DNA of 64,000 nucleotides from Dioscorea cayenensis subsp. rotundata. Its lineage: Eukaryota; Streptophyta; Magnoliopsida; Dioscoreales; Dioscoreaceae. The notes under the pieces were generated by a model. The model ran no database searches and was not told where the DNA came from. It saw nothing but the letters and a program-made list of their open reading frames with translations. A program made the position numbers and the translations under genes. The DNA is taken from the NCBI RefSeq assembly GCF_009730915.1, contig NC_052489.1:22561916-22625915 (forward strand), read 5' to 3'. Positions 40,999-42,840 of the stretch are shown piece after piece (position 1 is the stretch's first letter; each line of letters begins with the position of its first letter).

Positions 40999-41338
40999 TT
41001 ATAAAATAAATGGCCGGGGATCCTTCTCCCGGATAATCTGTAAAGTATCTGCCACCGTGTCAGCGTTTAATGCATCTGCATTGACACTTGATAAATCATG
41101 CCTGCCATCTCGTGAAGACCTTCCATCAAACACCCAAGTCTATGAAATCACCCTTTTTCTCAATGTTAGCTTTCACATCAAAACTAGATTTGATACTTTG
41201 CATGTTGGGATGAAATACAAGGGATGATGCAGGTGACCTTAGATCAAATAATCTCTTATTGGTGATCTGTGTTCGGCCCTCCAATTGTAGTAAAACATGC
41301 AGATTGGGCCACCCTTGTTCGTACATCCACGTGTCTTT
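40999..41338 (-). pseudogene. Rep (C1) N-terminal fragment, geminivirus-like
   Basis: The minus strand from 41338 shows the second rolling-circle motif region (PNLHVLLQLEG), the geminivirus Rep sequence motif (RLFDLRSPASS, FHPNMQ) and the third motif region (SSFDVKANIEKKGD). A frame change lies near 41127, and the block continues as FDGRSSRDGR to a TAA at 40999. The first histidine expected in motif II is Asn, and the motif III position that holds the nicking tyrosine is Asn, so it could not nick DNA. Motif I is not seen upstream. Confidence 0.82.
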
Positions 41339-41620
41339 TCATGATTGGGCGGTTCAAATTAAAGTTGGCACCTAGATTCTCTCCAAGATTTGAATGAAAG
41401 ACCGGGCCCATAATGTAATTAAATAACTAATAAACAAAGAGTGATTCAGTGGAGTGACATCCAAAAAAATGCATTGTTGAGTGATGGGCCCCACAATCAA
41501 TATTTTATTATAGAATGTACAAGGCATTGTTGGGGGAAGACTGAGAGGAAGAAAAACGTAGAGAGAAAGATTAATAATTATATAAAGCTCTGATTTGAAT
41601 TGAAGAGACCAATATATATA
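41339..41620. other. Intergenic stretch of the geminivirus-like relic
   Basis: It lies between the Rep fragment and the divergent plus-strand ORF, where the origin would be. I see no convincing stem-loop with the conserved nonanucleotide; GGGCCCATAATGTAATT near 41402 is at best a decayed remnant. TATATAAAG near 41580 may be a TATA box. Confidence 0.35.
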
Positions 41621-41950
41621 ATGGAAAAAGAGGAAATCTTCACAGTGTATTTATTATTTAAGAGATACGGTCCAAGTACGCTTCTTAATTGTATGCATGG
41701 GATTTGTCTCGCCGAAGCTATTGAAGACAATCCACAGTCATGGTTGGACTACGCCAACACATTACAAAAACATGAAGAATCAATATATTGTATGCTTCGA
41801 GCAGTAGCAACCACAGGTAAGCAAGATGCAGAAGTTGCCGAAGCATATACCGTTGTGGAGAAGATGCGATTAAAAAATACAAAAAAAAAAAGGGTAACAT
41901 CGGGACGTCCAAGGGCGCAATACAAACAGGGTGGTAACCCAGAACGATAA
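41621..41950 (+). CDS. Unknown 109-residue ORF in the virion-sense position
   Basis: The ATG at 41621 is preceded by a TATA-like TATATAAAG about 40 bases upstream. The ORF reads MEKEEIFTVYLLFKRYGPS to a basic tail (KKKRVTSGRPRAQ). Its place and orientation match where a geminivirus keeps its virion-sense genes, converging on REn. I find no clear similarity to V2 or coat protein, so it may be unrelated or strongly diverged. It is uninterrupted, which is notable beside broken neighbours. Confidence 0.35.
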   Translation: MEKEEIFTVYLLFKRYGPSTLLNCMHGICLAEAIEDNPQSWLDYANTLQKHEESIYCMLRAVATTGKQDAEVAEAYTVVEKMRLKNTKKKRVTSGRPRAQYKQGGNPER

Positions 41951-42226
41951 AATCAAAGTAAAGAGGAGGTACATGAATCATGTAGGCTCAAGTAATCTAA
42001 TGTCCAATAAATAAATATAAAGTTGAAATATGAATGCAGTAGGTATTGTAACGATATAGTAGTATAATAATGAAATAATAATGTTGCTCATTCGGTATGT
42101 GTAAGAAAAATATGGAGGAGTGATAAACGTTGGCAATGGAAAAAGAAACTAATAACAAAACATTGAATCCCAGTTAATATAAATCATACTGAATATGTGC
42201 TGTATTTTGTACATCAATGATATGAC

Positions 42227-42577
42227 TCAAGAACTGGCGAACAAAATATACAATAACCCGAATGATAGAATTAATTGAAATAACACTAAAACTCTGTAAA
42301 ACCACATTACACGACAACAAAATAAATGAAGAAAACTATCGGTCAAAGGCTGGAGGTCCATCCAGATTATGAAGAACAACCAACACTTGTTTAACCCCAA
42401 GGACTTACGAAGATTGTAGTTGAAACGTACTTCAATTGTTATGCGGTCCCAATTGTGTAGAAATGGCTGGCTGATATGCTCTTTTACACGGAAGTACAAG
42501 AGATTTATCAAATCCCAAATAAAAACGCCATTGTTAGCCTGAGCCTCCGTTATAAGGTCGTCAGTCCTATAATCCAT
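42227..42577 (-). pseudogene. REn (C3)-like ORF of the geminivirus-like relic
   Basis: ATG at 42577, TGA at 42227, 116 residues. Family-typical features are MDYRTDDLITEAQANNGVFI, a W.L.NLLYF segment, IEVRFNYNLRKSLGLNKCW and a hydrophobic C-terminal half. REn proteins enhance viral replication by binding PCNA and Rep; usual length is about 132-134, so this is slightly short. The reading frame is open although the neighbouring Rep is broken. A cysteine- and asparagine-containing segment in an overlapping frame just upstream (about 42617-42570) looks like a decayed C2/TrAP, ended by early stops. Confidence 0.75.
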
Positions 42578-42618
42578 TATTAACAAAGTAACAAAAGACA
42601 GAGTTGTAAGAACGACAG

Positions 42619-42840
42619 TCAGAGTGAAGATATAGCACCGTCACTGGCAGGTGTCTCTGGCGATTGATAGAGTGGAGATACAATGAATTCAAAATGTGCA
42701 TTATGTAATGTCCAAACATGTAAAGGGAGATTCTCCTCTTTATTTAGGTAAGCTTTATAGGTAGAATTATGTCCGGGATTACGTATCACAATAGATGGAA
42801 TACCACATCTTTTTTGAACCGGTTTACCATACTTACAATT
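42619..42840 (-). pseudogene. Rep (C1) C-terminal fragment, geminivirus-like
   Basis: The minus strand reads NCKYGKPVQKRCGIPSIVIR, then NPGHNSTYKAYLNKEENLP and WTLHNAHFEFIVSPLYQSPE, ending at TGA 42619. This is the helicase motif C region through the C terminus of geminivirus Rep. Upstream of 42840 the frame stays open to about 42966 but no longer resembles Rep, marking the junction. The end overlaps the start of the C2-like segment, as in real geminiviruses. Confidence 0.78.

What the first reader, a model, noticed from the sequence alone, without database searches (positions are those of the whole stretch)
40999..42840. Circularly permuted endogenous geminivirus-like relic
Seen: Rep N-terminal motifs on the minus strand at 41338-40999, and REn plus the Rep C-terminus on the same strand at 42577-42227 and 42840-42619, with an opposing ORF between. 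Known: geminiviruses are circular, with Rep-C2-REn in one direction and virion genes in the other. Inference: a circular genome opened inside Rep was integrated and decayed; both outer limits lie in Rep. The nicking Tyr and one metal-binding His are replaced, yet REn remains an open frame. This is the only virus-derived piece in the window.
Basis: partly seen in the sequence, partly recalled or inferred. Interest (0 to 1): 0.85.

Follow-up and report, generated by a model that had tools for sequence, protein, structure and literature searches.

The report
Decayed geminivirus relic, probably yam
A broken, old piece of a plant virus sits in a plant chromosome (probably yam) as one of a family of such fossils already known in yams, and the family hints at a two-part virus whose main half had lost its coat gene before it was trapped.

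Summary
In detail: minus-strand ORFs match the geminivirus Rep catalytic domain (E 2.2e-20) and REn (E 3.3e-19), ordered as a circle opened inside Rep. The element spans about 40965-42853 and lacks the Rep middle. It is one of 36 match clusters (a lower bound, window included) in its own genome and resembles the published endogenous geminiviral sequences of yams, EGV1/EGV2 (PMC5014472). The locus is a new, dead member of a known kind.

The family is more interesting. The opposing ORF is an orphan frame with a purifying-selection signature. In 19 of 20 testable loci there is no room for a coat gene; the 20th has an insert. Most divergence appears to predate integration. The genome also has 63 hits to the DNA-B movement protein, and 30 of 60 coat/shuttle-family hits are convergent with one. 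A capsid-less, two-component ancestor is possible but not shown: 26 of the 60 are unpaired and unclassified, and the Rep and REn family scans did not complete.

The parts
40965..42853 (.). whole virus-derived element, limits good to a few bases
   Evidence: blastn to 20 relatives and junction view
41126..41338 (-). Rep catalytic-domain fragment, without motif I
   Evidence: Gemini_AL1 E 2.2e-20, profile 45-108 of 113
40999..41139 (-). Rep linker fragment in another frame
   Evidence: tblastn to 11 loci; ratio 0.20 in frame
41304..41322 (.). join where 310 nt (Rep start, origin hairpin) present in L010 are missing
   Evidence: module map and hairpin scan
41322..41620 (.). intergenic-region remnant without origin hairpin
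   Evidence: module map
41621..41950 (+). orphan virion-sense ORF, 109 aa
   Evidence: homologues in other copies and SRA assemblies; ratio 0.33 in frame; no Pfam family
41951..42226 (.). spacer without coat gene
   Evidence: gap to REn 277 nt here, 233-388 nt in 19 relatives
42227..42577 (-). REn open frame, tail uncertain
   Evidence: Gemini_AL3 E 3.3e-19 over residues 2-97; frame differences
42619..42853 (-). Rep C-terminal fragment
   Evidence: blastn to relatives, ratio 0.40 in frame
40257..40964 (.). left host flank, repeated at five virus-free places
42859..42946 (.). 88-nt piece of a dispersed host repeat abutting the element
42940..43871 (.). right host flank with a paralogue (L036) about 36 kb away
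   Evidence: 84% over 949 columns

Best explanation
A dead, chromosomally integrated DNA-A-like unit of the yam endogenous geminivirus (EGV) family. A circular replicon with Rep, REn and an orphan virion-sense protein, or a piece of a head-to-tail array of it, was joined into the chromosome at a break, probably by end joining: a few A's are shared at the left join, and an 88-nt stray host repeat lies at the right join like filler. The Rep middle was lost at the opening and the Rep start plus origin by an internal loss. It has decayed since; it can make no working Rep and lacks the origin at which Rep nicks, so at most it feeds small RNAs. Shown: homology, order, losses, multi-copy family, host flanks, selection signature. 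Inferred: joining mechanism, circular intermediate, host name, small-RNA role.
For: Rep and REn Pfam matches and PDB match; module order and losses against 20 relatives; 64 DNA matches in 36 clusters; five virus-free relatives of the left flank that all stop matching at 40962-40964; right flank. Yam: the window's LEGRTQITNKRLFDL agrees at 11 of 14 residues, with one extra residue, with the EGV1 Rep peptide printed in PMC5014472; unit structure Rep, REn, no coat, tandem copies as described there. Age: unselected part of divergence 0.112 (0.087-0.148).
Against: No published EGV sequence was compared as DNA. The right-hand paralogue does not continue into the left flank, so the target site is not seen empty and a later rearrangement could have made the junction. 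In three relatives REn aligns in one frame to its end, so decay of REn is less sure than that of Rep.
Confidence: 0.85

Rival explanations
1. The window holds a fragment of a former head-to-tail array, trimmed on both sides, and not a single opened circle.
For: Arrays in L010, L024 and L025; tandem EGV1 reported in D. alata (PMC5014472).
Against: Only one unit is present and its two ends fall about 320-380 nt apart on the circle, as loss at one opening would give.
Confidence: 0.4
2. EGV copies spread inside the host by Rep-driven, Helitron-like transposition from chromosomal copies, as PMC5014472 suggests.
For: Many dispersed copies, purifying selection on Rep, REn and the orphan ORF, origin hairpins in L010, L020, L024, L026 and L028.
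Against: dS above 0.389, the Ks to D. zingiberensis (PMC9010478), in 17 of 19 comparisons is hard to reach at a host rate; the window's ends are not at the origin and its left site is not an A/T target.
Confidence: 0.2
3. Assembly join of separate fragments, or contaminating virus.
For: No reads were available to check the joins.
Against: The copy is decayed, its nearest relative is 80% identical, it lies in a 31.6-Mb contig between host segments, and relatives share its module order.
Confidence: 0.03

Closest known systems
Yam EGV1 and EGV2 (Filloux 2015, PMC5014472)
   Same: Rep and REn related to begomoviruses, no coat gene, tandem and dispersed copies, origin hairpin in EGV1 and in some relatives here; Rep peptide agrees at 11 of 14 residues.
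   Different: This copy lacks the Rep start, Rep middle and origin. The conserved virion-sense ORF is not mentioned in the sections read; that paper notes only a small-RNA region near ren that does not apparently encode a protein. DNA not compared.
D. alata EGVs in the survey of Sharma 2020 (PMC7758297)
   Same: Clustered Rep copies; potential nuclear shuttle proteins typical of bipartite begomoviruses.
   Different: In the parts read, no movement/shuttle gene pairs in DNA-B order are described; its supplements were not read.
Begomovirus DNA-A and DNA-B
   Same: Gene order and families Gemini_AL1, Gemini_AL3 in the window; Gemini_BL1 and Gemini_coat/BR1 elsewhere in the genome.
   Different: No coat gene at its usual place in the loci tested; orphan virion-sense ORF instead.
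Nicotiana GRD elements (as described in PMC5014472)
   Same: Multi-copy endogenous geminivirus-related DNA.
   Different: Not compared by sequence here; that paper found no post-integration selection in them.

Membership tests
Geminivirus DNA-A | Rep catalytic domain | tested here: met
   E 2.2e-20, partial profile 45-108 of 113
Geminivirus DNA-A | REn (begomovirus type) | tested here: met
   E 3.3e-19
Geminivirus DNA-A | opposing virion-sense gene across the intergenic region | tested here: met
   conserved ORF 41621-41950
Geminivirus DNA-A | coat protein | tested here: not met
   no Pfam hit; spacer of 277 nt
Geminivirus DNA-A | origin hairpin with TAATATTAC | tested here: not met
   absent in the element; present in L010, L020, L024, L026, L028
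Geminivirus DNA-A | TrAP (AL2) | tested here: inconclusive
   no AL2 hit among the 10 ORF pieces; PF01440 was not searched in the genome
Yam EGV family | integration in host chromosome in many copies | tested here: met
   36 clusters, host flanks
Yam EGV family | close kinship to published EGV1/EGV2 sequences | tested here: inconclusive
   11 of 14 residues of one printed peptide; no accession compared
Bipartite begomovirus | DNA-B-like movement and shuttle genes in the same genome | tested here: met
   63 BL1 hits; 30 of 60 coat-family hits convergent with one; met for the genome, not for this copy
Bipartite begomovirus | common region shared by both components | tested here: inconclusive
   L026 origin region beside BL1 is 76% identical to that beside Rep in L020; L026 is a mosaic; genome search of the origin region not answered
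Helitron transposon | fixed ends and insertion between A and T (recalled) | tested here: not met
   ends lie in Rep; left site reads A|C in virus-free relatives

The most novel reading that the evidence does not exclude
The yam EGV ancestor was a capsid-less, two-component geminivirus-like replicon: a DNA-A-like circle with Rep, REn and an unknown virion-sense protein but no coat gene, and a DNA-B-like circle with movement and shuttle genes. It diversified under purifying selection (ratio about 0.13) without a coat gene, passing from cell to cell and through tubers and not in particles, and was trapped in chromosomes again and again.
Probability: 0.25. Interest if true: 0.85.

Novelty: new member of a known kind. 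Interest (0 to 1): 0.5.

Why it matters
For the locus alone, little: yam EGVs are published. The family data bear on a question left open in PMC5014472, namely how these elements persisted without coat and movement genes. They offer three testable points: a conserved virion-sense frame not mentioned in the parts of the literature read, an A-like part without room for a coat gene in 19 of 20 testable loci, and DNA-B-like genes in the same genome. If they belong together, a geminivirus-like replicon gave up its capsid and still persisted in a tuber-forming host.

Tried and rejected
Chance or mis-framed Rep/REn match: rejected by Pfam, PDB and copies elsewhere. Opposing ORF as coat or V2: no support in any of 12 members scanned, best PDB match E 0.32; protein searches gave only the window's own protein and unnamed proteins of source 'lgn', 5 of 6 rows and 14 of 15; AlphaFold2 gave a weak helical model (mean pLDDT 63), so no fold search was made. 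REn: no protein homologue and none confirmed in viral contigs. RNA family at 40300-43500: none up to E 0.1. Host assembly: not identified from paper searches. The RepC rows used a wrong frame and were not used. Dropped rows: one inverted chance pairing in L043 (gap -7). L026 (gap 971) was kept as the exception; its ORFs suggest an insert, which I did not classify. 9 of the 36 clusters were never fetched. Never answered because the machine was busy: PF08283, PF00799, PF01407, the origin-region search.

Full report
What is there. The window lies in a 31.6-Mb contig of a 584-Mb genome of 2,249 contigs. On the minus strand, 41126-41338 is a Rep catalytic fragment (Gemini_AL1, E 2.2e-20) and 42227-42577 a REn frame (Gemini_AL3, E 3.3e-19). 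Comparison with 20 loci of 10 kb fetched from the same genome puts the element at about 40965-42853.

Anatomy. As a circle in virion sense, the relatives read: intergenic region, virion-sense ORF, spacer, REn, Rep end, Rep middle, Rep catalytic part, Rep start with origin. The window reads: Rep catalytic part, intergenic region, virion-sense ORF, spacer, REn, Rep end. The Rep middle is missing where the circle is opened; in 9 of the 10 fetched loci that have both sides, about 320-380 nt lie there, and 2.2 kb in L018. A further 310 nt, present in L010 with motif I and the TAATATTAC hairpin, are missing near 41304/41322. The two Rep fragments are in different frames. Two key Rep residues are replaced, seen against relatives. 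The tail of REn matches in another frame in five relatives but in the same frame in three; the tail of the virion-sense ORF matches in another frame in two (L009, L015). Rep is broken in several ways; REn and the ORF may or may not be whole.

Flanks. The left flank (40257-40964) has five relatives, 90-92% identical over the searched stretch. All five stop matching at 40962-40964 and go on without virus; L030-L032 share what follows, L033 and L034 are near-identical to each other, and the two groups share only the first few tens of bases. A few A's are common to host and element at the join. On the right the element abuts an 88-nt piece of a dispersed repeat (42859-42946), then sequence with a paralogue about 36 kb away that starts at 42940. 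That paralogue does not continue into the left flank, so the element sits where two host segments meet. I read this as end joining with filler; a later rearrangement is possible.

Family. The DNA search gave 64 matches, a lower bound since 40 of 112 candidates were scored; they form 36 clusters at 6-kb spacing, the window included. L010, L024 and L025 are arrays and L020 holds an inverted pair. The copy in L012/L013 is split by what looks like an LTR retrotransposon with LTR distance 0.096, about 3.7 million years at a recalled grass rate of 1.3e-8. L026 and L028 share flanks and look like a segmental duplication. The nearest relative is L009 (support 99/97; 80% identical).

Selection and age. 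In gap-free blocks against 20 loci the coding frames have low ratios: virion-sense ORF 0.33, REn 0.24, Rep catalytic 0.16, linker 0.20, Rep end 0.40, Rep middle of L010 0.28. The other frames of these pieces run from 0.34 to 1.67, the lowest being those that mirror the same wobble position; the spacer has 0.63-1.34 and the intergenic region 0.54-1.51. For the virion-sense ORF the mirrored antisense frame is nearly as good (0.38, 23 stops against 26), so its strand rests also on the conserved start and on proteins predicted from other assemblies. Against 19 loci (several with two units pooled), dS runs from 0.27 to 1.12 and dN from 0.116 to 0.252. A fitted line has slope 0.130 (0.088-0.168) and implies an unselected part of 0.112 (0.087-0.148). 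That lies between the Ks of D. alata-D. rotundata (0.064) and D. alata-D. dumetorum (0.163); 17 of 19 dS values exceed the 0.389 to D. zingiberensis (passages of PMC9010478). So, if the host is a yam, most divergence seems to predate integration and was under selection. All comparisons share the window and are not independent, and dS near 1 is poorly measured.

Coat gene and second component. Both the virion-sense ORF and REn were found in 20 of 26 examined loci; the gap is 233-388 nt in 19 and 971 nt in L026, which seems to hold an insert. A coat gene (profile of 244 positions) would not fit in the 19. Nine clusters were not fetched. Yet Gemini_coat, a family covering coat and nuclear shuttle proteins, has 60 hits in the genome, 52 over the cut-off, and rings in 0 of 14 control genomes. 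Gemini_BL1, the DNA-B movement protein, has 63 hits, all over the cut-off, and rings in 0 of 14 controls. 34 of the 60 coat-family hits lie within 1.5 kb of BL1 and 30 are convergent with it, the DNA-B order (recalled); 26 are unpaired. In 5 of 36 clusters an A-like match lies within 6 kb of a coat-family or BL1 hit. In L026 (BL1 E 6.1e-25 and 1.5e-19) the origin region beside BL1 is 76% identical to that beside Rep in L020. Repeat lengths are 2,494 nt in the A-like array L010 and 2,492, 2,396 and 2,353 nt in three B-like arrays.

Against the capsid-less reading: the 26 unpaired coat-family hits could be true coat genes, on A units too diverged for the DNA search; the Rep and REn family scans that would tell did not complete. 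The shared lack of a coat gene may also mark one lineage that later multiplied inside the genome. That A-like and B-like pieces were one virus rests on a few neighbouring loci.

What is known. PMC5014472 (abstract, part of the methods, sections 3.2-3.9 and the conclusion read) describes EGV1 and EGV2 in yams: Rep and REn, no coat or TrAP gene found, tandem units, small RNAs, a Helitron-like proposal. PMC7758297 (abstract, passages, section 3.3) reports D. alata hotspots and potential nuclear shuttle proteins. In the parts read I saw no conserved virion-sense frame and no movement/shuttle pairs in DNA-B order; the searches listed no other paper on yam EGVs that I opened, and their remaining rows were seen as listings only. 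The library is partial and supplements were not read.

Verdict. As a locus, ordinary: a new, decayed member of the yam EGV family (host name inferred). The family context is more interesting than the locus.

Noticed in passing
window 22262-22853 and L009:5772-6371: A repeat in the window also borders EGV copy L009 (80% identical) and occurs in L019 (76%).
   Followed up: no
G000: 60 coat/shuttle-family hits and 63 BL1 movement-protein hits in the genome, many convergent; some in arrays of about 2.35-2.5 kb.
   Followed up: partly
L013:4433-6353 and L012:2708-4552: Direct repeats about 10 kb apart that split an EGV copy, LTR-like, distance 0.096; gives a minimum age for that copy.
   Followed up: partly
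L010:2961 and L019:4151: Two copies end at the same place of the Rep catalytic module (position 140 of 340).
   Followed up: no
window 19439-20630 (+) and 44718-45919 (-): Two papain-type cysteine protease genes (I29 and Peptidase_C1 domains) in opposite orientation; sequence near the second recurs in L037 further along the contig.
   Followed up: no
window 27216-29510 (+): hAT-type transposase remains (DUF659, Dimer_Tnp_hAT).
   Followed up: no
window 62285-63376 (+): Copia-type retrotransposon reading frame (SH3_retrovirus, RVT_2).
   Followed up: no
window 42859-42946: 88-nt dispersed repeat with many short matches in the genome; no Rfam match.
   Followed up: partly
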